From a virus, in IMG/VR virus record IMGVR_UViG_3300033145_001047, positions 22,168 through 86,167 of that record: a DNA stretch of 64,000 nt; one strand, given 5' to 3'. Made by a program: the position numbers and the translations under genes. Under the pieces are notes generated by a model. It did not search any database. It was not told the DNA's origin and saw only the letters and a list, made by a program, of their open reading frames with translations. Shown here one piece after another: positions 46,635 to 60,889 of this stretch (position 1 is its first letter; every line of letters begins with the position of its first letter).

Positions 46635-46823
46635 TCAGTCTCCCTTCTCGATTACCTGTTCATCCTCCGGCCACTCCATCACCTCCTCCAGTATGGCCAC
46701 CTTTCCCACTGTTTGCTGGTACTCTTTCTCCAGGCTCACAAGGCGCTTCCTCAGCTCCTCGATTTTCATGAACACCATCTTCTTCGTGATCTTCTGTCCC
46801 AGGGCATCCGGCGTCGCCTCCAT
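46635..46823 (-). CDS. Small coiled-coil protein
   Basis: 62 residues from ATG 46823 (GGAGG eight bases upstream). FMKIEELRKRLVSLEKEYQQ, TVGKVAILEEVMEW is a helical heptad. It is read inside the 3' end of the glycosyltransferase frame, where its own frame looks more natural. Confidence 0.6.
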   Translation of the reverse strand: MEATPDALGQKITKKMVFMKIEELRKRLVSLEKEYQQTVGKVAILEEVMEWPEDEQVIEKGD

Positions 46824-47778
46824 TGTCTTCTCCTCCCGCCTCCTCGTCGAAGGCTTTCAAGATTTCCTCAGAACTGTAGTCCATGCAACGGTCGTCGAAT
46901 TGGCACTCCCACATGAACCCAGTCGGTTGTATGTCGAACAAGTAGCTGTTCGGCCTGTGGCACATCGGCGTCGGACACGCCTTTCGCGTCAGGTTCCGGT
47001 GCTCTCCATAGCCGAGCACCTTCGGATTCGTTCCGCCCCACATGCACACGGTCCTCTTCCCGAGAGCCGTGGCTCCGTGGTAGAGGAACGAGTCGATGCA
47101 CAACACGTGCGGGACATGCAGCAGCAGCGCCAGGATAGAACGTACCGGGAAGTTGACTATCTCCGCCTTGCTCGGGTGGAACTGGGTGTCGTGGCCGACG
47201 CTGCCGACCATGAAGCCGCGCTCGACCAGAGCGTCCGTGATCTCGGTGACGACATCCTCCGGAAGCGACCGCCGGTACATGGCCGACTTCGCCGTAATCT
47301 TCGCCTTCTCGCTGCGGTCGTCCGGCTTCTTCCCGCCGTTATGCTGGAAGAGGACCATCTTCCGGTCGAAGCCCTCCAGGTAGACCCGAGCCATGCTTCG
47401 CTCGTTGTCAGTGAAGTACAGCTCCGGGTGGACCCCAGTGCAGGGGACGCCTATCAGGTCACACCAGCACTCGACGAAGTGCTTCCGCCCGTACACGTAG
47501 TTGAACGCCGTGTACGGCTCGACGTTCAGGACCGCCGTCTTCGATTCGAGAATGTAATCCTCGAAGAAGTAGAGCGGGTTCCCGACATTCACGACGCGCC
47601 GGATGTGTGGATTCTTGAGAAAGACATCCGGGCATGTTGCCACGACCGTGAGGTCCTTCTCGGGATATGCTGCCTTGATCGACCGGACGACCGCCGTGGC
47701 CATGATGTTCCGACCGATACCACCCTGGACGACGAGGGCTATCTGCTCGGCGTCCTCCATGTCCTTCGCAATGTCCAT
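46660..47778 (-). CDS. Family 9 (heptosyltransferase-like) glycosyltransferase
   Basis: 372 residues as an open frame; the last 55 run over the coiled-coil gene 46635-46823 and are probably not functional. The start, IALVVQGGIGRNIMATAVVR, and the donor-site block LCIDSFLYHGATALGKRTVC, MWGGTNPKVLGYGEHRNL match ADP-heptose:LPS heptosyltransferase-like (GT9) enzymes. It would transfer a sugar to a surface glycan or virion protein. AGGAGG precedes the ATG. Located between tail tip and lysis genes, so it may serve serotype conversion or virion decoration. Confidence 0.8.
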   Translation of the reverse strand: MDIAKDMEDAEQIALVVQGGIGRNIMATAVVRSIKAAYPEKDLTVVATCPDVFLKNPHIRRVVNVGNPLYFFEDYILESKTAVLNVEPYTAFNYVYGRKHFVECWCDLIGVPCTGVHPELYFTDNERSMARVYLEGFDRKMVLFQHNGGKKPDDRSEKAKITAKSAMYRRSLPEDVVTEITDALVERGFMVGSVGHDTQFHPSKAEIVNFPVRSILALLLHVPHVLCIDSFLYHGATALGKRTVCMWGGTNPKVLGYGEHRNLTRKACPTPMCHRPNSYLFDIQPTGFMWECQFDDRCMDYSSEEILKAFDEEAGGEDNGGDAGCPGTEDHEEDGVHENRGAEEAPCEPGERVPANSGKGGHTGGGDGVAGG

Positions 47779-47831: not shown

Positions 47832-50800
47832 CTAAGCGTAGGCGATGGTCAGAAAATTCACCATCCCACCGCTGTCGAGAATCGTCCCCGCCTCCGTTGT
47901 CTCGGTGAGGGAATACATCTTCCGATAGTTGCAGCAGTACGCCGCCCCCACCCAGGTACAATAATAGTATCGACACACACAGTCCACTATATTACAACAC
48001 CAGAAGCAAACCTCCTGGGTAATATTTTTCACACACGCCCGCCCGCCGATGTGCCCCTGCCTGTTCGGGAAGTAGGCGTGGCACTCGATACGGAGAGCCC
48101 AGTGCGCGTCGACGCATACGCAGCACACGTAGTCCGTGATATCCTGACAAGCGGAGGCGTAGAAGTTCTCGCATCCGCTCTGCGCTGCCGGTGGAAACAC
48201 ACAGCACATTGTCGCGCAGTCTCCATAGCATCCGACTATAACTCCCGCCGCCTGGTCATGGTCGTGGGGCAAGCACCAGCACATGCAACCGTAGAGGTCG
48301 TATCGTAGCGTCCCCTCGCACACCATCTTCGTGCACGTGTCCCAGTGTCCGAAGCTGAACCCCTCGGAGTCCGAACAGCAGCACCAATTCCCGAGTGAAT
48401 CGCATCCGGGCAAGTAGTACACGGTCCATATCAGGCAACGGTCGGACCTCGTGATGCAACAGCAGGCCCAGTACGACTCGTCAACCGGGTAGGTGTAGCA
48501 GCACAGGTTCCGCGTATATGCTCCGCTGCAGATTCCGCTGTCCACCCAGGTCAAGCACACCTGATAGAGCTGAATGTTCCAACAGTCCGAGGGCGTGAGC
48601 TGAGTCGAGTCGAGGACCTGACACTCGATATATGTCGTCCCCATTGTTGTGATCGTCGTGTGAGCCTGCTCGTAGGTATGACACTCTCCGCACCACACCC
48701 CGCAGCCAGCCGCCCGGTATCTGACCTCGTAACACAAGAGCCCGTACTTCCAGGTGTCCGGCGCGGTGCTGTGACATGCAAGCTGGAACATTTCCTTGAC
48801 CAGGACCTCGCACGTGCACACGCCGGTCGTGACGGTCTGTCCGAAGTCACAGAGATAGATACACTCGGGCCGCGTCCCACCGGAGATTGAGAGCTTCGCG
48901 TGGACGTCGAACTTCCAGCCGTAGTTCGAGGACACCGTCGGGTCTCCGTACTGGGTGAGATTCGCGTGATAGACACACCACTCCTGACAGTCCGATAAGT
49001 AGCTGCAGTCGTATGATATCATGCTCCGGATTCCGACCATGACCTCCGGCTGCTCGTACCATCCACACAAGCACACCGTCGACCCGGCACAGGCCGAGCC
49101 GCTGCATATCCGCTTCGCGTATGGTATCTCACCCCATCGGTGATGGAACTTGAGGGAGCCGTGGTCGAGGTAACTGTAGCTGCAGCAGCAGTACGAGTCC
49201 GGGTCTATCAGGCACAGCTCCCCGGCCTCCAGCTTCACGACAGCACGTCCGCAGCAGTCGTACGAGTACAGACCGGCGTCGTTGAGTTCCGTCCTCTGAC
49301 AATCTGCCGAGGTCATGATACACGCGCCGATGATCGTCCCGGCGGTCATGCAACCCAGGTCCGCCGACATAGCGGATATCTGTATAATGTTCATCTTCTC
49401 GGCGGTTATCTGATTCGCTCCCAGGTGTGCCGTGAGAATCTGACCCGCTTGTATACTCCGTGCACTGATTGCACCTTCGCCGACATGTACCGAGTTAATC
49501 GCGTTCGGCCCGATGTCCCCCGAGTTCAGGAGGACCGGGTCGGAGCTGACGACGTTCGACCACTCGCCGGGTCCGTACTTGTCGACGGCCCTGATTCTGT
49601 AGTAGCTCGGGTCGTGAGGCATGAGCACCACCGCGCTCGTTCCCTGACTCTTCGCGTAGAGCTGCTCGTGAAGGACACCCTGCGGGTCCTCTTCTCCCTG
49701 GAACTCGGGGATGTCGTTCTTCCATATCTCGTACTCGACCAGGTCCGCGTCCGTGCTGTCATCCCACAACAGCATCACTTTCTGAAACAGAGGGGACAGC
49801 GTGAGCGATATCGCAGCCGGTGCCGGATTGATAGGACTCAGCGTCGCCGCCTGGTCAGAGAACTTGCCGCTGGTGTTGTACGCCTTGATAAGGTACTGAA
49901 TCCCCGACCGCGCTGCAGGTCGCGCCAGATAGAACTTCTCGGCGCGGCCTCTCCATATCAGGTTCGAGTCCGTCGTCCCCCAGTTCAGCTCGTTCGTCCG
50001 TATCTCATACCCGGCCAGGTTCTCGTCGGTGCTCGGTTCCCAGGTGAATTGTATCCCCTCCTCGAACGTGTAGGAGAATCCATCGACCGCCGCCGGTCCC
50101 TTCTGCCAGCCCTCTATCGCCACCGCGACCTGGGGACTGGTCGCCGGGACCTTTTTCTCCCCCTCCTCCGTAACCGAGACAACGGCGAAGTTGTAGGTGC
50201 TGCCAACAGCCAGGGCTCGGCGCACCTGGTGCATGTCCTTGTCGGTCTCGCCGACGAACTCCCAGGAGCCGCCGCTATTGTCGGATACCCATATCTCGAA
50301 CTTGACGACCTTCTTCACCCATCGGCTGCTCGTCGCCGGTTTCGTCCACGCTATGTTCACGACGTCGTCGATGCTGCCGTCCCCGAGCCTTGTGACCTGC
50401 TCTTCCCCGGTGACGTTCGAGGCGTTCGGGATATCGAGCGACAGGTAGCTCCAGTCAGAGTCCGGGAACACGACGCCGCTGTAGTCGTACGCCGTCGCGT
50501 TGTATTCGACGGCCCCGATGAAGACGTTCCCGTTGCTCATTCTCTCGACGGAGGTCACGCGATACAGCTTCGTGACCTGATTCGTTATACCGAAACTCCA
50601 GACGTCGTAGCTCTCCGGCGTGAAGCTGAACGCCGGAGTGACGTTGACCTCGTTGTAAAATCCCGCGCTGTCGGATATCGTCCGCGTCTCCAGGGTATCG
50701 TCCGCGTTGTTCCGGAGTTGTATCTGGTACGTCTTTCCGAGTTCGAGTTCTATCGTCTTGTCCAGTACGACCTTAGTGGTCGTCGAGCCGGCCTGGACCC

Positions 50801-52505
50801 GGCCACCCTCTCCCCACTGCGGAACGTCATGCTGGAACTGAACGACGTCGCCGGGCTGACAGTTCACCGCGTCCCACCCGGTCTCGAAGTCGATGCTCTT
50901 CCGGTTGAGCTTCAACTTGTTCAGGATGATCTTCCCCTCTCGGAGAGCCTGGGACATTCTGGTGCAGCCGATGAACTGGAGGGACTGTTCCCGGAGTTCT
51001 TCACCCGCTGCGATAGATGTCTCGTCCGCGACCTCGATGGTGGTCCGGTTGTAGTTGCTATCCTTGTTCGTGTAATCCAGGCGGACGACGTTCGGGACCC
51101 CTTTCTTCGAGAGATAGCGGAGACTGAACGAATCCTTGACGATGTTCCCCATGTTGAACATCTGGACCGGGTCTTCGGCCTTCTCCACCAGGAGGCGGAC
51201 CATCCCGGACGATACGTTCATGAGCCCCCGGAACGTCGAGCACATCCGATAGATTATATCAAGCGCCGGTTCGTTCGTATCCAGCACCAGGTCGAGCCTC
51301 ATACGTTTCTCGGCCACGCCGTTCAGGTCGTCGATGCCCTCGTCGCAATACTTCGCCGCCGCCAGGAAGGACGCCTCGTCGATGTCGTCCGTTGTGATGT
51401 ACTGACCGAGCCCGGCCCGTTCGTCGAGGAGCAAGTCGCGGACACACCACGCCGGATTCGCACAGAAATCAGTCTTGTACGAGACGCCGTCCCAGGTGCA
51501 CACGCTGTCCGTGCCTATCAGCTTGAAGGTACTCGCCCCCCCGTCCCAGTAGTAGTCCTCCCAGTCGACCGGGTCCCCCAGGCCGTCGTAGACGTCGGGG
51601 ACTCGTACTTTCTTCCCGCTCACGACACAGGTCACGTTCGGGAGTCCGCCCTTGAGCTTCTCACTCGCCAGGAGCCGGAGCCCCAGGAGAGCGGTCCCCG
51701 GATATTGGAGGTCCTCGGTGGTGATCTCGTCCACGGACAGGACCCGGACGGTCCCGAACCTGGTGGAGCCTTCGTCCTCGGATGTCTTCGTGAGTCGTAT
51801 CTGGTATTGTCCGGGCGTCAGGTACTCGCTCTTGAAGTATCGCTTGAACGGAGAGCGGGTGTTCTTCTTCATCTCCATGACGCCGTAGGATATCCACTCC
51901 GGGTCCCCGGCCAGGCGGTACTCTATCCGAATCGCCGCGTACCAGCTCGTCTCGTTCTCGTTCGCGTCGACCTGAAACATCTTGTCGTACTGGAACTCGA
52001 TATTGAAGCACTCGCAGTCCGTCTTCGTCGTCGTGTATTCGTACGGGACGTTCCTGGGAAGCGCCTCGCTCACTGCGACCAGGCCGTGCACGTCGCCGAA
52101 GTTCTCCATAGCCGACTGAGAGGAGGTCCCCTTCCTGACAGTGATCTCCGCGTACTTCCCATAAGGGTCCCCCGCCGCGTCGCCGTAGTAGTCCTCGACC
52201 GGGTTCCCGTCTATCTTGACGTTCGATATTGCCTCGATCTCTCCCTCGCATACGGCAAGCAGCATATTGAGCGTGTCGTGTTCGCCCTCCTCGACATAGA
52301 CGTTCACTACATTCGGTGCGATAAGGTGGCGACCGTAGACGACAGGAAGCGACAGCCCGACATCGGCGTTCATTCTCGCGCCGTTCCATCTGTAGGTCGG
52401 ACTCTCTTCGAGGGGTGCGTCGTCCGCCGGGATAAGAGCCGCGTCGTCGACCGGCAGCGCCAGCCGCGTCGTCGTCAGTGCAGCGAATATTGTGTCGAGT
52501 CCCAT
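47832..52505 (-). CDS. Lambda J-like tail tip/host-specificity protein with Cys-rich C-terminus
   Basis: 1557 residues. Residues 1-650 resemble phage tail tip attachment proteins: LPVVYGRHLIAPNVVNVYVE, CEGEIEAISNVKIDGNPVED, then GLRLLASEKLKGGLPNVTCV. About 700-1000 are fibronectin type III-like modules (PVDEWTK-like starts; YEIWKNDIPEF, YYRIRAVDKYGPGEWS). A helix ISARSIQAGQILTAHLGANQ leads to the terminal domain. From residue 1042 to 1525 there are about 63 Cys, roughly one in eight, in runs such as SYCCCS, WACCC and NWCCC; the preceding 1000 residues have few. The end (TILDSGGMVNFLTIAYA) is Cys-free. It recognises the host receptor; the Cys-rich region is unprecedented to me. Confidence 0.88.
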   Translation of the reverse strand: MGLDTIFAALTTTRLALPVDDAALIPADDAPLEESPTYRWNGARMNADVGLSLPVVYGRHLIAPNVVNVYVEEGEHDTLNMLLAVCEGEIEAISNVKIDGNPVEDYYGDAAGDPYGKYAEITVRKGTSSQSAMENFGDVHGLVAVSEALPRNVPYEYTTTKTDCECFNIEFQYDKMFQVDANENETSWYAAIRIEYRLAGDPEWISYGVMEMKKNTRSPFKRYFKSEYLTPGQYQIRLTKTSEDEGSTRFGTVRVLSVDEITTEDLQYPGTALLGLRLLASEKLKGGLPNVTCVVSGKKVRVPDVYDGLGDPVDWEDYYWDGGASTFKLIGTDSVCTWDGVSYKTDFCANPAWCVRDLLLDERAGLGQYITTDDIDEASFLAAAKYCDEGIDDLNGVAEKRMRLDLVLDTNEPALDIIYRMCSTFRGLMNVSSGMVRLLVEKAEDPVQMFNMGNIVKDSFSLRYLSKKGVPNVVRLDYTNKDSNYNRTTIEVADETSIAAGEELREQSLQFIGCTRMSQALREGKIILNKLKLNRKSIDFETGWDAVNCQPGDVVQFQHDVPQWGEGGRVQAGSTTTKVVLDKTIELELGKTYQIQLRNNADDTLETRTISDSAGFYNEVNVTPAFSFTPESYDVWSFGITNQVTKLYRVTSVERMSNGNVFIGAVEYNATAYDYSGVVFPDSDWSYLSLDIPNASNVTGEEQVTRLGDGSIDDVVNIAWTKPATSSRWVKKVVKFEIWVSDNSGGSWEFVGETDKDMHQVRRALAVGSTYNFAVVSVTEEGEKKVPATSPQVAVAIEGWQKGPAAVDGFSYTFEEGIQFTWEPSTDENLAGYEIRTNELNWGTTDSNLIWRGRAEKFYLARPAARSGIQYLIKAYNTSGKFSDQAATLSPINPAPAAISLTLSPLFQKVMLLWDDSTDADLVEYEIWKNDIPEFQGEEDPQGVLHEQLYAKSQGTSAVVLMPHDPSYYRIRAVDKYGPGEWSNVVSSDPVLLNSGDIGPNAINSVHVGEGAISARSIQAGQILTAHLGANQITAEKMNIIQISAMSADLGCMTAGTIIGACIMTSADCQRTELNDAGLYSYDCCGRAVVKLEAGELCLIDPDSYCCCSYSYLDHGSLKFHHRWGEIPYAKRICSGSACAGSTVCLCGWYEQPEVMVGIRSMISYDCSYLSDCQEWCVYHANLTQYGDPTVSSNYGWKFDVHAKLSISGGTRPECIYLCDFGQTVTTGVCTCEVLVKEMFQLACHSTAPDTWKYGLLCYEVRYRAAGCGVWCGECHTYEQAHTTITTMGTTYIECQVLDSTQLTPSDCWNIQLYQVCLTWVDSGICSGAYTRNLCCYTYPVDESYWACCCITRSDRCLIWTVYYLPGCDSLGNWCCCSDSEGFSFGHWDTCTKMVCEGTLRYDLYGCMCWCLPHDHDQAAGVIVGCYGDCATMCCVFPPAAQSGCENFYASACQDITDYVCCVCVDAHWALRIECHAYFPNRQGHIGGRACVKNITQEVCFWCCNIVDCVCRYYYCTWVGAAYCCNYRKMYSLTETTEAGTILDSGGMVNFLTIAYA

Positions 52506-52506
52506 G

Positions 52507-55428
52507 CTATACCACCGTCATGAATATGGCTTCGGTTATTCCCACGTCGTCCTTCATGCTTCTGTACACGTCGTTGACTTCTCTCCGCGTCGTCACCCTT
52601 ATGTTGTCGTGGTGCCACTGTTGTATATCAGGAGGCGTCCCTTCCTTCAAGAAGTTGAACCTAATCGCACTGCTATATCCTCCGTCGCCTGTTTCGTCAC
52701 ATGCTGTCCCCTGATACTTTCCGTCAACATAGACATCGACTATCAGGAGCCCACCGCTCTCGTAGGTTCCGGCAGCACTCACTCGCAGCTCGATGTCGTG
52801 GTAATTTCCGTCCTGGATGTCTATGTCGAGCAAGATCAAGGTCAGGTTTATCGTGATGTACGGATAGTCGAACCTCACATAGAGTTTCTGTTCTGTCCTC
52901 AAGTACCACTGGACGACCCATGATTGGGTGAAATCTTCCTTGTATCGGAACTTGACTTCGTACAATGCGGGGTTCGTGAACCCGGTGAACGTCTTCACTA
53001 TCTCTATCTTCTTGTACCCACCTGTCCCGTACAGTATCCACCGCCACTCGCCAGCGGGGTTGACATCCGCCACGGCGTTCCCGACCACCGACTTGCTCCA
53101 GGCGTTCGTCGTGTAATCGTCGCACGGTTCCAACATGAACGGGTACGTGTACGTCGGCTGCGTAACATCTTCGGCGACGCTCACGTCCTCGGACACGCTC
53201 ATGGGAATGATACTGAACGTGTACATGGTGACGTCTTCGGTCACGTTCACGTTCTCGACAGGCTGTAGCGCCAACGCGCTCCAGAAGAACTCTACGTCCT
53301 CCGTGATTCCCACAACATCGGCAACGACACCGACCTCGACCACGATGTCCAGGACGGATATCGTCTCCGTTATCAGGACGTCGTCGGAGACGGAAACATA
53401 CAGCCAGTATGGAGCGGTCGCGGCGTATTCGGTGACGGTGATCTCGTCGAAGAACTCCACCGCCAGGGTGTCGAACAGGGCCGCGAAGTTCTCGACCACC
53501 GTGACCGTGTCGTCGATCTCCAGCAGGAACTCCATGAACATGTTCACGGACTCGTCGACCGTGCCCGTCAGGTCCTCGAACACGCTCACGTCGATGGGGA
53601 CCTCCAGGTCGATGTTCTCGACGATGCTCAACAGGTCGACACCGACGATGTCGTCTATCTCGGGAATGACCACGTCGGCCTCGGTGACGCTGACGTCCTC
53701 CTGTGCTGACAGGAATATAATGTCCTGTTGTAGCTGAACATCTTCCAGGACGAATAGCGTCTCGAACTTGTCCACCAGGAATAGCCCCGCCAGGTCAGCC
53801 GACTCCGTAACGGAGACCGTATCGTATACCCCGATGTTCTGCGGGAGTATGAACGGGACCAGCGCGACGTTCTCCTCGACCGTGATGTCTGTCGTCAGGC
53901 TCGTGTCGTTGTCGCGGTGCCACACGTACCGGATGTTCCCCTGCTCCAGGAGCAGCAGCTCGATGTCGTCTATCCGGCCAGAGCCGTCAGTCGTTCCTGT
54001 CGTCGCTATCTGTATCTGTCCATTGCTGACACTCCCGCTCCTCCTGGTGTCGGCGAATCCCCTCGCCGCCCAGTCGCCGTCGATGTAGACGTCGACCAGG
54101 AGACCCTCCCCGTCTTCGCACTCTTCGAGGACCCGCAGCTCGAACTCGACCCAGTTGGACCTCGCGTCGAACAGGTTGAACCACCAGTCCCCCGAGTTCA
54201 GCGCCAGGCTTCCGGACGCGCCCTGATTCTGGTATAGCGTAAACCTGAACCGGAGACGGTCGCTCCCCACCGTTATGACCAGGCTCCCATCGTCGCCGAC
54301 GATCTTGTACTTGAACTTGAGGCTGTAATACCGCTGCAGGTTGACGCCGGTCGTCCGTGTGCGCTGCCCGACGTTGTCCAGGCCGTCGCCGGTTATCAGG
54401 AAGGACCCCGAGTCAGAGACGAATGACCCGGTCCCGGTGGACTGGTCATTCCAGCCGCTCACACTGGAGCAGTCGTCCTCGTACAGCAGGTCCACTACGT
54501 CCAATCCGACCAGGTCCTCGACCGTGATGTCCTCGGTCGCCGGTATCCTCCAGGGTGGTTCCGTCCAGGAGGCAAGCTCCTCGCTCACTGTGACCTCGTC
54601 GCTGACGGCCACGTCGAGGATATCATAGGCCAGGGCGACGATTTCCCACACCCAGGGGCTCTCGTAGACGCTCAGGTGCAGCTCGTCCAACACCAGGGCC
54701 ACGTCCTCGACGACAGGGACCTCCTCGACAGGGGTCCCCACGTTCACCCAGTCCTGCCAGGTCTCGAAGTCCTCGACCACGCTAACGGTCTCAGAGGCTT
54801 CGAGAATGAGCACGACCTCCCCGGCGAAGAACTCCGTCACCGTGAGGACCTCGTCGACCGGCACAGGGTAGTAGACGCCCCAGGTCACCAGCTCCTCGAC
54901 GACGACGAACTCGGTCACCTCCAGGTAGAGGATGTCGGGGGCCAGCGTCACCGACTCGGCGACGAATATCAGCTCGTCCGGTATCGCGCTATTCGGTTCC
55001 CCGAGTCGCATCTTCGCGTCGTACCATAGCTGCTCGTCCGCCGCTATGTTCTCCAGGCTTCCCCCGGAGTAGGCCGTGAACTTCGCGGCGTCCGCTGCCA
55101 CGACCTTGAACTCGTACACCAGCTCGTCACTCTTCCCGAGTTCGACGAACGTGTCCTTGTAGACTCTCGATTCTCCGGAGGTCTCGCGCTCACTGACGAC
55201 CGTGGCGAAGCGTGTCCACGTCGTGTCCCCTGCTTCCCGGAAGTAGCACTGATACCGGCCCTCGTATAAAACGGGGAGGGCGTCGTCGCCGTCCTTCACC
55301 CACCCGTATCCCCGCAGCTTGATACGGAAGTCAACCGACGCCGAGCCCGAGACGATGGTGTTCGTCCACAGCGACTCGGCCTGACTCGCTATCTCCGCAT
55401 CTTTCCACTGTTGGTATCTGTCGTACAT
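52507..55428 (-). CDS. Tail protein with Val/Asp/Glu repeats and two lectin-like domains
   Basis: 973 residues. A conserved start (MYDRYQQWKDAEIASQAESL) is followed by a beta domain. Two jelly-roll-like regions resemble LamG/concanavalin folds: about residues 310-480 (DDCSSVSGWNDQST ... LLVDVYIDGDWAARGF) and 800-940 (TTNAWSKSVVGNAVADVNPA ... LLIVDVYVDGKYQG). Between and around them are acidic strands of the type DVSVTE, DEITVTEY, repeated about every 20-40 residues. Probably a fibre or baseplate-hub ornament binding host glycans. Follows the HNH gene with a TGATG overlap. Confidence 0.72.
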   Translation of the reverse strand: MYDRYQQWKDAEIASQAESLWTNTIVSGSASVDFRIKLRGYGWVKDGDDALPVLYEGRYQCYFREAGDTTWTRFATVVSERETSGESRVYKDTFVELGKSDELVYEFKVVAADAAKFTAYSGGSLENIAADEQLWYDAKMRLGEPNSAIPDELIFVAESVTLAPDILYLEVTEFVVVEELVTWGVYYPVPVDEVLTVTEFFAGEVVLILEASETVSVVEDFETWQDWVNVGTPVEEVPVVEDVALVLDELHLSVYESPWVWEIVALAYDILDVAVSDEVTVSEELASWTEPPWRIPATEDITVEDLVGLDVVDLLYEDDCSSVSGWNDQSTGTGSFVSDSGSFLITGDGLDNVGQRTRTTGVNLQRYYSLKFKYKIVGDDGSLVITVGSDRLRFRFTLYQNQGASGSLALNSGDWWFNLFDARSNWVEFELRVLEECEDGEGLLVDVYIDGDWAARGFADTRRSGSVSNGQIQIATTGTTDGSGRIDDIELLLLEQGNIRYVWHRDNDTSLTTDITVEENVALVPFILPQNIGVYDTVSVTESADLAGLFLVDKFETLFVLEDVQLQQDIIFLSAQEDVSVTEADVVIPEIDDIVGVDLLSIVENIDLEVPIDVSVFEDLTGTVDESVNMFMEFLLEIDDTVTVVENFAALFDTLAVEFFDEITVTEYAATAPYWLYVSVSDDVLITETISVLDIVVEVGVVADVVGITEDVEFFWSALALQPVENVNVTEDVTMYTFSIIPMSVSEDVSVAEDVTQPTYTYPFMLEPCDDYTTNAWSKSVVGNAVADVNPAGEWRWILYGTGGYKKIEIVKTFTGFTNPALYEVKFRYKEDFTQSWVVQWYLRTEQKLYVRFDYPYITINLTLILLDIDIQDGNYHDIELRVSAAGTYESGGLLIVDVYVDGKYQGTACDETGDGGYSSAIRFNFLKEGTPPDIQQWHHDNIRVTTRREVNDVYRSMKDDVGITEAIFMTVV

Positions 55429-56141
55429 CAGCTAATCAGCCCTGTCGTTTTCACTTCATCGTGACAGATATTGCAAACTGTCAGTCCATTACTGACGTCC
55501 CAAAACTCGGGCCATTCATGTAATGCTAATTGCAGCAAAGCCTCTTTATCGTCACTGGGGCTGAGATAATTGTAGTGACATAGAAACTCTGATATCAAAA
55601 CACTAAACGATTTTCTGCGGTGGTGGGCTTCCAGGTTCCCACCCTTATCATCACCACAAATCGTGCATCTATAATTATCACGACTGTAAACACGCTCACG
55701 CCATTCCCGATAGAGCCCGCTGTTTCTAATCATTCCTCGTAGTGGCGTTCTGCCATCAATGTATCGTGGGCTATCTTTGCCACCACTTTTCAATCTTCCC
55801 TCTTTGTAAGCCAGCCTGACTCCTTCGCTAACCTTCTTATTCCAATGGATTGTTCGTCCAGTAAGAGTCTCCGACAATTTATGTCTTGCTTGTGGTGAAT
55901 TCATCGGATTTAATTCTCCTCTTACAGTCATGCAGTAACTACAGGAACAATCATTCTTATGTAGATGCAGTCCGTAATCATTCTTTCTGTCTATAGACCA
56001 TTTCTTCTTTGTCTCTTCAGAGTGTCTTTTCCCTTTGAATCCATTGTTGAACTTTCCCTGCCATTTATTCTGGCATAATCTTGAACAATAGACTCTATGA
56101 GTACTATCCAAGACACCATTACAATATTTGCAGTGTTTCAT
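55428..56141 (-). CDS. HNH homing endonuclease with NUMOD3 motifs
   Basis: 237 residues from ATG 56141 (ATGA overlap with the gpL-like gene). MKHCKYCNGVLDSTHRVYCS is a zinc knuckle; NNGFKGKRHSEETKKKWS and RHKLSETLTG...KVSEGVRLAYKEG are NUMOD3-type DNA-binding repeats; the nuclease core is CTICGDDKGGNLEAHHRRKS, then NGLTVCNICHDEV. The gene is clearly AT-richer than both neighbours, which fits a free-standing homing gene inserted among tail genes. Confidence 0.85.
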   Translation of the reverse strand: MKHCKYCNGVLDSTHRVYCSRLCQNKWQGKFNNGFKGKRHSEETKKKWSIDRKNDYGLHLHKNDCSCSYCMTVRGELNPMNSPQARHKLSETLTGRTIHWNKKVSEGVRLAYKEGRLKSGGKDSPRYIDGRTPLRGMIRNSGLYREWRERVYSRDNYRCTICGDDKGGNLEAHHRRKSFSVLISEFLCHYNYLSPSDDKEALLQLALHEWPEFWDVSNGLTVCNICHDEVKTTGLIS

Positions 56142-56752
56142 CGTATTAGCAATCGTTTCATCGGGATTCCGGGGAAACCTCCGTATCGTTCGGCGTTGTT
56201 CAACTCTCGGCATCTCTGCAGCGTCTTGTTACACGTCGACTCCGCGCCAGCGTATCCGCAGTCCGTCCCCTGGAACTGGAACAGACAGTACCCCCGGAAG
56301 AACGTCCGCCTCGGCAGCTTGATATCGAGCACGTCGAGCGAAGGGGCCAGCGTCAGCTCGACACCCGCTTGGTTTGAGCTGGAGTCTTCGACGTAGAACG
56401 TGTCCTCCATGTAGCAGTTCGGGTTCCCTATCTCGTCGTACCACACTAGCCTTATGACGATCTTCTTCTGACGAAGGCCGTCGTAGTTTTCGAGGTAGGC
56501 TTGAATCTCCCGCGACACGTTGCCGAGCCGCATCGTCACCATGTCGACGCGACCGGCGAGTCCTTCCTTGATAACGTCGTGGCTGACAGTGAAGGGAGTG
56601 TACGTCACGCCGTCGAAGTTGACGGTCGTCGGCCAGCTCGTGTACCTGAGCCACAGGTTGCTCACGGCGTCGTACTGTATCGAGTACAGGAGAATCGGCC
56701 TTATCGTTTCCGCGTTCTTCTGCGCTTTGAACGCATCTATGACGGTCTTCAT
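56138..56752 (-). CDS. Lambda gpL-like minor tail protein with Fe-S Cys motif
   Basis: 204 residues. The N-terminal part has strands typical of the gpL/DUF2163 type (VNFDGVTYTPFTVSHDVIKE). The C-terminal block CLFQFQGTDCGYAGAESTCN, KTLQRCRELNNAERYGGFPG supplies the four Cys that bind a 4Fe-4S cluster in lambda gpL. It initiates tail tip assembly with the J-like protein. Overlaps the HNH gene at ATGA; the last codons (MKRLLIR) run into that overlap. Confidence 0.85.
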   Translation of the reverse strand: MKTVIDAFKAQKNAETIRPILLYSIQYDAVSNLWLRYTSWPTTVNFDGVTYTPFTVSHDVIKEGLAGRVDMVTMRLGNVSREIQAYLENYDGLRQKKIVIRLVWYDEIGNPNCYMEDTFYVEDSSSNQAGVELTLAPSLDVLDIKLPRRTFFRGYCLFQFQGTDCGYAGAESTCNKTLQRCRELNNAERYGGFPGIPMKRLLIR

Positions 56753-56753
56753 T

Positions 56754-58298
56754 TTAGAATACCTCTAGAATTACCACGCTACCGAAGTAAGCGTTAAAGT
56801 ATCGCCTCTCCAGGTCGAAGCTGTCCTCCTCGAACCTCACGGTCCTTGTGATTCCGTCTATCGGATTCGTGAACTCGAACGTATCCAGGGGTCCACTCTT
56901 CGACTCGTAGAAGTCGCGCACATTCTCGGCCTCCGCCTTTCCCATGACGGGGAACGTGATGGTGAACTTCTTCCTGGACCGCCCCCACTTGTCTCGCCGC
57001 TGCTCGACACCGTTCTCGAACTGAGAGACCATGATGCTCCGAATCGTCTGCTCGATGAATGGATACCCTCGGAGGATATCGTTGAAGGCCGCGTCAATTC
57101 CCGCAGCTCTCGCCTCTCCGACCAGGACGTACTCGTTGACCTCCAGGTGAATCACCAGGTCGAGCAGCTCGACGTCCTCCGTGGCGGTGATATCCTCCGA
57201 GACCTCGACGTCTATCCTGGTGTCGAACACGTTCGTGTACTCGGTAACCGTGATCTCGTCATAGACGTCCGGCTCCAGGGTCCCCGGCCCGGCGGTCAGG
57301 TCCTCCACGACGGTCACCGCGTCGAACACATCGACCTCGACGACCTCGTCATGTGTATTGATATTCTCGACCACTGCAACATCGTCGTATACATCGACTT
57401 CCAGCTCAAGGTCGGACGTCGAGGCGTACTCCGTGATCGTCACCACGTCGAACACCGACAGGTCGATATCGAGGTCGAGGATGGTCACCGACTCCGCGAC
57501 GGTGACATCCTCCGCCCCCGACAGTTCGATCACCAGGTCGTTCGTCGAGGCGTACTCTGTAACGATTACGTCCTCCGACGCTTCCAGGTTGAATTCGGCC
57601 ATGCTGACCGTCAGAGACTCATCGACGTCAAGGACGTCTATGATGTGGAAGTAGGCGAACAGTTCAGGGAGGAGGATCACCGGAGCCTCTGAAATTGCCA
57701 CGGCCTCGACCACCACTCCCATCTCTATCATGAGGTCGTTCAGGAGCCCGACATCAGTCACCAGGAAGGTCTCGTGCACGTCGATCTCTACCGGCAGCTC
57801 TATCTCAAAGTCCTCGACCAGTGCCACATCTTCCGAACCATCCAGCTCGACAATCGGGTCAAGGACGTCCGGGCTCTCCGTCGCTTCGATCTCGTCGTTG
57901 ACGGATATCAGGAGGATATCGAGCACGATCTCGGGGACCTCGGCCAGCACGACGTAGTCGATTATCCCGAGATAGGCCACGATGTCGAGGTTGAACTCCG
58001 TCGACTCTTGCACCGTCAGCGTCTCGGCCACCACTCCGACCTCGATCACCAGGTCGTTCAGTATCGAGACATCGGTCACGAGGAGGTCCTGGTATATGTC
58101 GATGTCCAGCGGGAGGTCGAGCTGCAGGTCCTCAGTCAGGGACAGGTCCTCCGAGACCTCAAGTTCGACGACCGGGTCGTGGACGGTAACCGACTCCTCA
58201 GTCGTGATAGCTTCCGCCACGGAGATGTTCAACACGTCGAGGAGCATGTCCGCGTCTTCCTGGGTGCATACACACTGATATACTGAGAAGTCGGCCAT
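56754..58298 (-). CDS. Repeat-rich tail protein with gpM/DUF2460-like C-terminus
   Basis: 514 residues. Residues 20-410 are acidic Val/Asp/Glu repeats. A 106-residue unit is duplicated (residues 25-130 and 131-236; both contain LVTDV, LNDL, IE.GVV and IID). From about 240 come seven shorter units near 21 residues of the form LxLxVxVyDdVtVtEyxxxxD. The C-terminal 110 residues (RDKWGRSRKKFTITFPVMGK, FYESKSGPLDTFEFTNPIDG) look like the distal-tail/gpM-type domain. Follows the tape measure gene, so it is probably the distal tail component with an added stalk. Confidence 0.72.
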   Translation of the reverse strand: MADFSVYQCVCTQEDADMLLDVLNISVAEAITTEESVTVHDPVVELEVSEDLSLTEDLQLDLPLDIDIYQDLLVTDVSILNDLVIEVGVVAETLTVQESTEFNLDIVAYLGIIDYVVLAEVPEIVLDILLISVNDEIEATESPDVLDPIVELDGSEDVALVEDFEIELPVEIDVHETFLVTDVGLLNDLMIEMGVVVEAVAISEAPVILLPELFAYFHIIDVLDVDESLTVSMAEFNLEASEDVIVTEYASTNDLVIELSGAEDVTVAESVTILDLDIDLSVFDVVTITEYASTSDLELEVDVYDDVAVVENINTHDEVVEVDVFDAVTVVEDLTAGPGTLEPDVYDEITVTEYTNVFDTRIDVEVSEDITATEDVELLDLVIHLEVNEYVLVGEARAAGIDAAFNDILRGYPFIEQTIRSIMVSQFENGVEQRRDKWGRSRKKFTITFPVMGKAEAENVRDFYESKSGPLDTFEFTNPIDGITRTVRFEEDSFDLERRYFNAYFGSVVILEVF

Positions 58299-60889
58299 TA
58301 TCTGCTCACCCCCTTGACCACTCTCCGCGTGACTCCTCGCTTGATTATGTCCGCGTTTATCGTGTTAATAATCAAGTTCTTATCCAGCAGCCCGTTCACC
58401 ATGCTCGGGTCGATCACGTTCACGATAGTGACCTCTCCGCTCCCACCCTGTCCTTCGTTCTTTCCCCTTGGCGTCACCGATTCGCCTCGGTGCAACTGGT
58501 ACATGCCGGTCTCGGGGACGAACGGGGTCCCGCGCTGCAGTGTCCCCAGTCCGGTCGGCCACTCCGACGTCATGCTCCCGAACCCGGAGGAGGAGAACGT
58601 CGTGTCGTCGTCAGTAGACGCGCCGTGCAGTGAGCCACTGGTCGCACTCGCTGCCGACCGTACTGAACTCGCCGTCGACAGAACAGTCGAGGCCGCACTC
58701 CGAGGAGTAGAGCGGAGGAACTTGCTCCCGCCGCCCTCGCCAGCCTTCGACACTAGCATCCCGTGCTGTCTCTGCAGTGCAGCAGTCTCTCCATCTATTG
58801 CGGACGTGTTCGCCCGTCGCGCCTTCGCCACCGCTGAGGTCGCGTCCGCCGACGTTTTCGTCAGGTCGGTTAGTTCCTTGAGTTTTCTAGTATATGAGTC
58901 CTGGGACTCCACTCCATCTTCGAGTCGCTTCTTGAGAATCTCCTGGGCCTTCGAGAACGCCTCGGAGCTGAGAGCCGCCTCGTTCATCTTCTTGTTGAGA
59001 ATCCCCTGAGCCTTGCTGCCTATGTCGATCTCTTTCGTCTTCTGCTTGTCGGCCTCTATCGTCTTGTACTTCGCCTTGAGTTCGTTCTCAAGAGCCATCG
59101 ACTCGTCGGCGTACTGGTTCAGCCGGTCGATGGTCATGTTCCGGAGTTTCTTCCCCTGGGCTTCGTCCATCTCGCCGGTCTTTATCCGGGCCTCGATCTC
59201 CTCCCGGTACTTCTGCTCTTTTTCTATTTTCGTATTCAGCAGCTCGATTCGTTTCTTGTCTTCCTCGCTGACACCCTGGAGCGACTTGGCGTACTCGTTG
59301 TTCGCATCGACCAGGCGCTTCGTGTTGGCCTTTTGCTGTTGCGTTCTCTCCGCCGTCGCCGCCGCCAGGTCGTTCTCCGCCTTGCGCCAGTAGTACAGCG
59401 CCTCGGCAATCTTGTATATTGCAGTGACTCCGATTGCGATAGTTGCAATCAGTGCGCCCAAAGTCACACCGAGCACGGCAGCACTCGCTCCGGCTCCGAC
59501 CGTGGCCGGAACGATTGCCGTAATAGCTGCCAGGAGACCACCGCCCCCGAATATCGCCCCGGCGATTGCGGTGATAGCGGGCCACAACGCTCCGAGGGCG
59601 AAGACAAGCTGCCCGGCCACTATAAGGAACGCCCCGCCAGCTACTCCCCCCGCGCCGATTCCTGCGGTCCACCTCACTATCCCCTCGGCGAGTTCCTTGT
59701 TCTCCTCAATCCAGTCCCTAATGCCCACCGTCATTGCCGGGATTATCTCGGTGCCGAGTTCCTTCATCAGCGGGACCAGCGGCATTATCACCGCGTCCTT
59801 CAATTCCCGGAGGCTTTCCTTCGAATGTCCGTACGCCGCCGTCAGCCGGTCCTGTTGTATAGCGAAGTTCTCGTCGACGATACCTGCCCTGGTCTTGAGT
59901 TCTATGGCCGTCTGCATGACGCCGTTCAGGTCGTTCGTGATAGCGGCGAGGCCCTTCGACGCCCGGATGTTCGGTATGAGTTTCGACGCTCTCTCCGCCT
60001 CGACCTCCCCGAGCTTCCCCATTATCTCTATCAGTTTGCCCTGCGCGACGGCTTGCTGCGGGGTCAGGCCGTACCATTCCTTCATCTGGTCTATTAGGTC
60101 TTCGGTCGGACTCTTGAGAGCGTTCAGGATAGCGTTCATGGATGTCGACGCTACGTTCACGTTTCCTATGCCGAGCGTCATTTTTGCGAACGCCGCCATA
60201 GCGTCTTCTGCGGTGACACCCATTTCCTTCGCCGTCGGGATGAACATACCCGATGTCGCGGCCAGCTCCGCGACGCTTGCCCGTGCTTTCACCTGGGTCT
60301 TGAACAGGAGGTCCGCTGCATCCGACGCGCCGTTCAGCGTGTCGCCGTAGTTCTCCATGAGGGTCAGGAGGCCAGCGGTCGAATCGCCGAGCCCCGCGCC
60401 ACCGGCCTCGGCCAGCTTCACCGCCGCCTCGAATATCCCCATAGCTTCGGAGGTGGTGTCTGTTGCAGACTTGACATCGAAGAACGCCTTGACCATATCG
60501 TTCCGGGAGACGCCGGTGGTGACGGCCAGGCTCCGTATCTGTTCCTCGATAGCGGCCATTGCTTGCTCGTCGCCGCCGAGGAGTATCTCTATATTCTTGA
60601 GGCCGTCCTCGAACGAGGCGAAGTCCTTGAGCATGAGGCCGTACGCGCCGGTGATTGCAGCCCCCGCCGTGGCCATGCTTCGGCCAGCTCCGGACATGGC
60701 CGTCCCCGCGCCCTTGAGAGACCCACTGATACGGCTCGACATCTCGGCGAAGGACCGACCGATAGCTGAGGCGTGTTTCCCCGCATCCTGAGCGAACGTC
60801 CTGATTTTCCCGGTTCCGCTTCCTAGCTTATTCGATAGGTCGCGGATGTCCCCGGTGATTTTCAGGTTCATTGCATCGAAGTCCGGCAC
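58298..60889 (-). CDS. Tape measure protein
   Basis: 863 residues. The early part has KHASAIGRSFAEMSSRISGS, AMSGAGRSMATAGAAITGAY and VTTGVSRNDMVKAFFDVKSA, typical of the phage tail tape measure core. A hydrophobic region of several helices spans about 400-500 (GAFLIVAGQLVFALGALWPA), followed by long coiled coils. It sets tail length; by the usual rule of about 0.15 nm per residue a tail near 130 nm is inferred. Overlaps the upstream chaperone frame by 62 bases. Confidence 0.92.
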   Translation of the reverse strand: MPDFDAMNLKITGDIRDLSNKLGSGTGKIRTFAQDAGKHASAIGRSFAEMSSRISGSLKGAGTAMSGAGRSMATAGAAITGAYGLMLKDFASFEDGLKNIEILLGGDEQAMAAIEEQIRSLAVTTGVSRNDMVKAFFDVKSATDTTSEAMGIFEAAVKLAEAGGAGLGDSTAGLLTLMENYGDTLNGASDAADLLFKTQVKARASVAELAATSGMFIPTAKEMGVTAEDAMAAFAKMTLGIGNVNVASTSMNAILNALKSPTEDLIDQMKEWYGLTPQQAVAQGKLIEIMGKLGEVEAERASKLIPNIRASKGLAAITNDLNGVMQTAIELKTRAGIVDENFAIQQDRLTAAYGHSKESLRELKDAVIMPLVPLMKELGTEIIPAMTVGIRDWIEENKELAEGIVRWTAGIGAGGVAGGAFLIVAGQLVFALGALWPAITAIAGAIFGGGGLLAAITAIVPATVGAGASAAVLGVTLGALIATIAIGVTAIYKIAEALYYWRKAENDLAAATAERTQQQKANTKRLVDANNEYAKSLQGVSEEDKKRIELLNTKIEKEQKYREEIEARIKTGEMDEAQGKKLRNMTIDRLNQYADESMALENELKAKYKTIEADKQKTKEIDIGSKAQGILNKKMNEAALSSEAFSKAQEILKKRLEDGVESQDSYTRKLKELTDLTKTSADATSAVAKARRANTSAIDGETAALQRQHGMLVSKAGEGGGSKFLRSTPRSAASTVLSTASSVRSAASATSGSLHGASTDDDTTFSSSGFGSMTSEWPTGLGTLQRGTPFVPETGMYQLHRGESVTPRGKNEGQGGSGEVTIVNVIDPSMVNGLLDKNLIINTINADIIKRGVTRRVVKGVSR

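What the first reader, a model, noticed from the sequence alone, without database searches (positions are those of the whole stretch)
47931..49382. Extremely cysteine-rich C-terminal domain on a phage tail tip protein
The last third of the J-like protein (residues 1042-1525) has about 63 Cys in about 484 residues, often in runs of two or three, while the rest of the 1557-residue protein has few. The Cys often sit where other tail proteins have Ser, Thr or Asn (for example TAGTIIGACIMTSADCQRTE). No phage receptor-binding domain I know has this density. It could be a disulfide-clamped adhesin, a metal-binding stalk, or a domain evolving under an unusual bias. Both TGC and TGT are used and the frame is intact, so it is not an obvious sequencing artefact.
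Basis: partly seen in the sequence, partly recalled or inferred. Interest (0 to 1): 0.82.

Follow-up and report, generated by a model that had tools for sequence, protein, structure and literature searches.

The report
Cysteine-studded phage tail with partner glycosyltransferase
The tip protein of this phage's tail ends in a domain covered with cysteines, and in every relative examined that domain is made next door to its own sugar-transferring enzyme, so the cysteines are most likely handles for a sugar coat, which would be a new kind of decoration on the part of a virus that grips its host.

Summary
In detail: residues 1041-1525 of the 1557-aa J protein hold 63 Cys (13%), against 11 in the first 1040. 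It is not an error or a mutational bias. Seventeen further homologous J domains, from viral contigs and one Omnitrophota genome, hold 23-66 Cys at GC3 0.16-0.79, while Cys positions turn over and the cores stay at 0.3-1.1% in all but one (truncated) J. The main new finding lies outside the given coordinates. A GT9-like glycosyltransferase gene (46660-47778) directly follows J. It follows every Cys-rich J that extends far enough (10/10 found without using it) and is missing after 47 low-Cys sister J genes. Distant members of this enzyme clade, marked by a four-Cys finger, sit beside Cys-rich tail proteins of unrelated sequence. A prediction written before the last scan held in 3 of 3 new finger-type contigs, one only after inspecting an ORF below my size cut. 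Best explanation: the enzyme glycosylates the exposed cysteines (S-glycosylation), coating the receptor-binding tip. Shown: linkage, covariation, selection. Inferred: Cys as acceptor, the sugar, the role. Disulfides and metal binding are not excluded but explain the enzyme poorly. The likely host group is Omnitrophota.

The parts
47832..52505 (-). J-like tail tip / host specificity protein, 1557 aa (stop included)
   Evidence: ORF; phrog_31 E 8e-147; Phage-tail_3, FNIII-A_GpJ
47835..49379 (-). Cys-rich C-terminal domain, residues 1043-1557 (63 Cys); ends in the motif ILDSGGMVNFLTIAYA
   Evidence: homologs
46660..47778 (-). GT9-like glycosyltransferase, 372 aa, starts 53 bases after the J stop behind a GGAGGA-type ribosome site
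   Evidence: ORF; Pfam PF01075 6.6e-5; linkage; start context
46885..46977 (-). four-Cys finger of the glycosyltransferase, CPTPMCHRPNSYLFDIQPTGFMWECQFDDRC (C-x4-C-x18-C-x5-C)
   Evidence: that it sits where the TibC iron finger sits relative to the GT core is inference, compare PMC4358343
47707..47724 (-). GGIGRN motif; the Asp of the LPS heptosyltransferase G-D motif is Arg/Lys here
   Evidence: alignment to 1psw
56138..56752 (-). minor tail protein L homolog (tail operon context)
   Evidence: PF05100 2.6e-11
58298..60889 (-). tape-measure-like minor tail protein (tail operon context)
   Evidence: PF10145 1.2e-20

Best explanation
The J tail-tip protein of this phage ends in a domain, probably all-beta, whose outward-facing strand positions have been filled with cysteines. 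The GT-B (GT9-like) glycosyltransferase encoded next to it transfers sugar, probably a heptose or other nucleotide-diphosphate sugar from the host's envelope pathway, onto those cysteine thiols before assembly. The finished tail tip then carries a dense S-linked sugar coat. The coat would keep a thiol-packed surface soluble and unreactive, tune or mask receptor binding, and protect the tip. Shown: the domain, its selection and turnover, its strict linkage to a specific GT clade, and recurrence of the pair with unrelated tail proteins. Inferred: that the GT acts on the tail protein, that Cys (not Ser/Thr) is the acceptor, the sugar, and the biological role.
For: (1) The GT gene follows J in 10 of 10 Cys-rich J loci found through J and reaching far enough (window, L082-L088, L094, L117), and in 0 of 47 low-Cys sister J loci with at least 1.5 kb downstream. 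Fisher 2e-11; the 10 loci against the 22 clusters (80% identity) of the 38 viral sister loci 1.6e-8. (2) Of 384 Omnitrophota genomes one (G156) has the domain; of 368 searched for the GT it is the only one with a strong match (one further at 8.7e-9), adjacent to the domain, with host-type kinase/regulator genes downstream. (3) GT relatives fetched by GT alone lie beside Cys-rich proteins, also ones with no detectable similarity to the J domain: L131, L132/L149, L134, L139, L141, L142, L144. (4) A prediction written beforehand held in 3 of 3 new finger-type contigs: L169 (55 Cys in 582 aa), L175 (J, 69 Cys), L200 (30 Cys in 144 aa, directly upstream, found by inspection). (5) Around the wider GT family Cys-rich ORFs are commoner within 3 kb than beyond 4 kb (17/306 v 3/322, p 0.001). 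(6) Cultured Pelagibacter phages HTVC111P/112P: GT overlaps a fibre gene with 1.5-1.9% Cys; fibres from phages without a GT seen nearby have 0.1-0.9%. (7) Cys sits between hydrophobic strand residues (W, I, L, V at -1; Y, L, F at +1) and replaces polar or charged residues, as expected for exposed strand faces. (8) GT members match LPS heptosyltransferase models and, in one member per alignment, the Aah/TibC autotransporter O-heptosyltransferase model (E 0.003, 0.007).
Against: No experiment; neither acceptor residue nor donor sugar is known. Ser and Thr remain common in the domain (6.6% and 7.2%) and could be the acceptors. About 11 columns are Cys in 7 or more sequences, which also fits some disulfides. 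The usual GT9 catalytic Asp is replaced, so activity is not assured. Distant GT relatives without the finger often lack a Cys-rich neighbour (48 of 64 new contigs at the strict threshold). TibC similarity is weak and rests on one member in each set. Structure models were of low confidence (pLDDT 44 and 48) and gave no fold match.
Confidence: 0.6

Rival explanations
1. Disulfide-clamped receptor-binding domain: cysteines form many disulfides in the extracellular virion, and the adjacent glycosyltransferase modifies Ser/Thr of the same domain or is a separate function.
For: About 11 columns are Cys in most homologs (among them 56, 174, 191, 203, 217, 231, 254, 291, 295, 296, 535), as structural disulfides would be. 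Ser/Thr are not depleted. Virions are exposed to oxidising surroundings (general knowledge).
Against: 60 of 129 Cys columns have Cys in a single sequence; runs CC/CCC and odd totals (63, 45, 35); a disulfide need does not explain the one-to-one presence of a GT clade or Cys enrichment in unrelated fibre repeats.
Confidence: 0.17
2. Metal or metal-cluster binding stalk: cysteines ligate Fe, Zn or Cu, perhaps to bind metal-rich host surfaces.
For: Cys density; the GT itself carries a conserved four-Cys finger that probably binds metal; i,i+4 spacing is 1.5 times expectation over all families; CxxC is raised in L082-L084 (4-6 v 1.8-2.0).
Against: CxxC below chance in the window protein (3 v 7.7) and about 1.2 times chance overall; ligand sets are not conserved; no metal-protein family matches at a credible score; no role for the GT.
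Confidence: 0.06
3. The glycosyltransferase alters the host's LPS or surface glycan (superinfection exclusion or receptor change), and the Cys-rich tip is adapted to that surface by free thiols; the two are linked only through the same receptor.
For: GT9 families act on LPS (Pfam/NCBIfam matches); a distant GT relative in cyanophage P-SSM2 (E 1e-5) lies near phosphoheptose isomerase, kinase, nucleotidyltransferase and epimerase genes; J proteins bind host surfaces.
Against: Why a surface-modifying enzyme should require Cys in tail proteins of unrelated sequence and probably different hosts (Omnitrophota, Pelagibacter phages) is unclear; the finger-clade GT always sits with the Cys-rich tail gene, also with a 144-aa Cys-rich ORF.
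Confidence: 0.12
4. Artefact or mutational bias: local sequencing error, frame error or a bias towards TGC/TGT.
For: None found; all source data are metagenome or genome assemblies.
Against: Intact frame in 18 J proteins in 17 clusters at 80% identity; Cys kept while the Cys codon follows GC3 (rho 0.60, p 0.009); the N-terminal parts of the same genes are normal in all but one truncated member.
Confidence: 0.01

Closest known systems
Bacterial autotransporter heptosyltransferases (BAHT: TibC, AAH) with hyperglycosylated adhesins TibA/AIDA-I (PMC4358343, read)
   Same: GT-B (GT9-like) enzyme with a four-Cys finger after the sugar-binding core, encoded beside a surface adhesin of beta structure that would be modified at many sites
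   Different: Acceptor in TibA is Ser; finger spacing differs (TibC Cys339, 342, 358, 370; here C-x4-C-x18-C-x5-C); no N-terminal beta-barrel domain is evident; model match to TIGR04414 is weak (E 0.003-0.007 in one member per set); here a phage tail protein
S-glycosylated bacteriocins (glycocins) and their S-glycosyltransferases (PMC12457901, PMC6405829, seen as abstracts)
   Same: Sugar transferred to Cys thiols by a dedicated enzyme of the same gene cluster
   Different: One or a few sites on a short peptide; their enzymes are GT2-type by my own knowledge, here GT9-like; here dozens of candidate sites on a virion protein
Phage-encoded virion-protein glycosylation (e.g. cluster F mycobacteriophages; Maravista note PMC11256854 suggests capsid glycosylation)
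   Same: Phage glycosyltransferase thought to modify a virion protein
   Different: Those acceptors are not Cys as far as I know; no Cys enrichment is reported
Lambda-like J / PHROG 31 central tail fibre proteins
   Same: Core of the protein (E 8e-147) and place in the tail operon
   Different: C-terminal domain matched no PHROG, Pfam or PDB family at a credible score beyond its linker

Membership tests
J-like tail tip protein (PHROG 31) | J core domains by profile | tested here: met
   E 8e-147; FNIII-A_GpJ 1.9e-12, Phage-tail_3 3e-20
GT9 glycosyltransferase | Pfam PF01075 above its cut-off | tested here: met
   22.8 bits, cut-off 22 (marginal); 5 of 10 members match at E <= 0.1
GT9 glycosyltransferase | Asp at the G-D motif (catalytic base position of LPS heptosyltransferases) | tested here: not met
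   alignment to 1psw: mostly Arg/Lys instead of Asp
BAHT (TibC/AAH) | match to TIGR04414 above its curated cut-off | tested here: not met
   best E 0.003 and 0.0067, one member each
BAHT (TibC/AAH) | four metal-binding Cys inserted after the sugar-binding core | tested here: inconclusive
   four conserved Cys in a similar place, other spacing than TibC; metal not testable
BAHT (TibC/AAH) | adjacent multi-site beta-structured adhesin substrate | tested here: inconclusive
   adjacency met; substrate relation not testable here
S-glycosyltransferase (glycocin type) | transfer of sugar to Cys thiol | not testable with these tools
   needs mass spectrometry
H-type lectin domain | Pfam match | tested here: not met
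   no match; resemblance of the W..P.V.V...W.V...GW.F.V pattern is from memory only

The most novel reading that the evidence does not exclude
A widespread phage system in which tail tips and fibres of unrelated sequence are filled with surface cysteines that a dedicated GT9-like enzyme with a four-Cys finger turns into a dense S-linked glycan coat: a polythiol-glycan receptor-binding surface, the first massively S-glycosylated proteins.
Probability: 0.5. Interest if true: 0.92.

Novelty: new variant of a known kind. Interest (0 to 1): 0.82.

Why it matters
As far as I know, S-glycosylation is so far known from a few small peptides and isolated sites. A phage tail tip with dozens of candidate sites (up to 66 in this family), paired with its enzyme in many phages including relatives in two cultured Pelagibacter phages, would reveal a large hidden class of S-glycoproteins, a new way for phages to shape or shield receptor binding, and a possible tool enzyme for cysteine glycosylation. 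It also gives a genome signature (Cys-rich tail gene plus finger-type GT9) that can be searched at once.

Tried and rejected
Direct search of the domain alone with single-sequence queries in viral contigs and cultured phages gave nothing; relatives came only through the J core and alignments. The genome scan with the domain found nothing; the J-core genome scan gave mainly Omnitrophota loci with ordinary, low-Cys J proteins as nearest cellular relatives. Two AlphaFold jobs were of low confidence and the fold search of the second is uninformative, so no fold is claimed. Pfam, PHROG and PDB searches of the domain: no credible family. Mutational bias: rejected. DGR-type variation was considered and dropped on general grounds (its adenine-directed changes would not make scattered TGC/TGT); no reverse transcriptase search was done. 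A heme c reading (one CGECH) was dropped: a single motif, not tested further. My first Cys-rich filter (>=150 aa) missed the L200 partner; inspection found a 144-aa ORF with 30 Cys directly upstream, a post-hoc step. Literature: no paper on Cys-rich tail fibres or on phage S-glycosylation found.

Full report
Observation. The window is part of an 86,167-base viral record. The J ORF at 47832-52505 (-) encodes 1557 aa with 74 Cys: 11 in residues 1-1040 and 63 in 1041-1525. At the protein's own background this has a probability near 5e-47. The core is a genuine J protein (PHROG 31, E 8e-147; Pfam J domains). No other ORF of the window comes near this density.

Relatives of the domain. A J-core search of IMG/VR gave 80 loci. 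Most have ordinary C-termini with at most 5 Cys per 200 aa, but some of the closest ones (49% identity in the core) carry a homologous Cys-rich end. Iterated profile searches, the GT scans below and a genome search brought the set to 18 homologous domains with a complete C-terminus, window included, in 17 clusters at 80% identity. They hold 23-66 Cys (4.7-13.2%) while the preceding part of the same protein has 0.3-1.1% (one truncated member, L127, 4.5%). No low-Cys version of the domain was found; two partial members (L002, L089) break off early.

Selection rather than bias. The Cys codon follows each phage's GC3 (rho 0.60, p 0.009; GC3 0.16-0.79), yet Cys itself is kept. Positions turn over: of 129 alignment columns with any Cys, 60 have it in a single sequence, while 11 have it in 7 or more. 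Relative to background, the over-represented exchange partners are Thr, Arg, Gln, Asn, Ser and Glu; Trp, Gly, His, Ile, Leu and Pro are under-represented. Compared with the rest of the protein the domain has less Lys, Asn, Glu and Arg but hardly less Ser or Thr. Residues just before Cys are enriched for Trp, Ile, Leu and Val, and just after for Tyr, Leu and Phe. I read this as Cys on the exposed face of beta strands; that is inference, because the structure models were poor and the fold search found nothing.

The neighbour. Directly downstream, 53 bases after the J stop and behind a GGAGGA-type site, lies a 372-aa GT9-like glycosyltransferase. Homologs follow J in all Cys-rich J loci that reach far enough (10 of 10, found through J) and in none of 47 low-Cys sister J loci with at least 1.5 kb downstream. 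The 38 viral sister loci fall into 22 clusters at 80% identity; against these the test gives p 1.6e-8. In Omnitrophota genomes the domain occurs in one of 384 and a strong GT match in one of 368, the same genome (G156), in which the pair is followed by a PAS histidine kinase and a response regulator, so it is probably a prophage.

Reaching out from the enzyme. A scan with the GT alignment gave 39 viral loci. Those with the conserved four-Cys finger (C-x4-C-x18-C-x5-C in the window protein) all lie beside a Cys-rich protein. Some of these partners are J domains recognised by the profile; others are not: L131, L132/L149, L134. In the wider GT family L139, L144, L141 and L142 have Cys-rich partners; L134, L139, L142 and L144 match tail fibre, tail spike or virion structural families. 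I wrote down a prediction before the last scan. Of 64 new contigs three have finger-type GTs, and all three have a Cys-rich partner: L169 (its GT has an in-frame stop), L175 and L200. The L200 partner is 144 aa with 30 Cys, below my preset 150-aa cut, and was found by inspection. In the rest of the family the link is looser: 16 of the 64 contigs have an ORF with at least 14 Cys per 200 aa within 3 kb; near against far ORFs 17/306 v 3/322, p 0.001.

Cultured phages. HTVC111P and HTVC112P of Pelagibacter HTCC7211 carry a homolog annotated 'putative glycosyl transferase' that overlaps the fibre gene. Their fibres have 12 and 14 Cys (1.5-1.9%); fibres alignable to them from phages where no GT is seen nearby have 0.1-0.9%. 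This is a small set.

Mechanism. I favour S-glycosylation of the exposed Cys by the adjacent enzyme. The functional link between enzyme and Cys-rich protein is well supported; Cys as the acceptor is an inference from covariation. The enzyme resembles BAHT proteins such as TibC in having a GT9-like core, a four-Cys finger and an adjacent beta-structured adhesin (PMC4358343), but the match to the family model is weak, the finger spacing differs, and the Asp of the G-D motif is replaced. So it may work like a BAHT; I do not file it as one. A weaker need for a general base with a thiol acceptor would fit the missing Asp, but that is speculation. The sugar is unknown. A distant GT relative in P-SSM2 near heptose-type genes and the GT9 matches make a heptose plausible.

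Rivals. Disulfides would explain the conserved columns but not the turnover or the enzyme. Metal binding lacks a CxxC excess in the window protein. A GT that modifies the host surface is possible but does not explain Cys in unrelated tail proteins. Bias or artefact is refuted.

Host. The nearest cellular J cores are in Omnitrophota genomes, and the one genome with the Cys-rich J lies in the same family as the Velamenicoccus archaeovorus genome used as centre. The window phage's own host is therefore probably, but not certainly, Omnitrophota.

Novelty. Each element has a precedent (virion glycosylation by phage enzymes, BAHT hyperglycosylation, S-glycosylated peptides), but I found no report of Cys-rich tail proteins paired with a glycosyltransferase. 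I rate it a new variant of a known kind, with a chance of being more.

Noticed in passing
window 52507-55428 (-) and 56754-58298 (-): Two tail-operon proteins (973 and 514 aa) carry many degenerate repeats of the type VSVTEDVTVTE; lengths of the homologs differ widely between relatives.
   Followed up: no
window 55428-56213 (-): A NUMOD3/HNH-type endonuclease gene sits inside the tail operon between the tail L protein and the 973-aa protein, probably a homing endonuclease.
   Followed up: no
L153 7245-9018, L154 6889-8046: Phage proteins with repeats YCAHYCARYCAHYC near two or more GT9-like genes; looks like another Cys-rich protein type tied to this enzyme family.
   Followed up: partly
L200 9074-9505 (+): 144-aa ORF with 30 Cys and CYDCS repeats directly upstream of a finger-type GT.
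   Followed up: partly
L166 (P-SSM2 record 235282-240797): GT9-like gene in a cluster with phosphoheptose isomerase, carbohydrate kinase, nucleotidyltransferases and an epimerase, which looks like a phage-borne nucleotide-heptose pathway.
   Followed up: no
L117/L118 (genome G156 contig C55): Apparent prophage with Cys-rich J and GT in an Omnitrophota genome, followed by PAS histidine kinase and response regulator genes.
   Followed up: partly
window 49140-52523 (+): 1127-aa open frame antisense to J, with no sign of being a gene; probably a shadow ORF of the GC-rich third positions.
   Followed up: no
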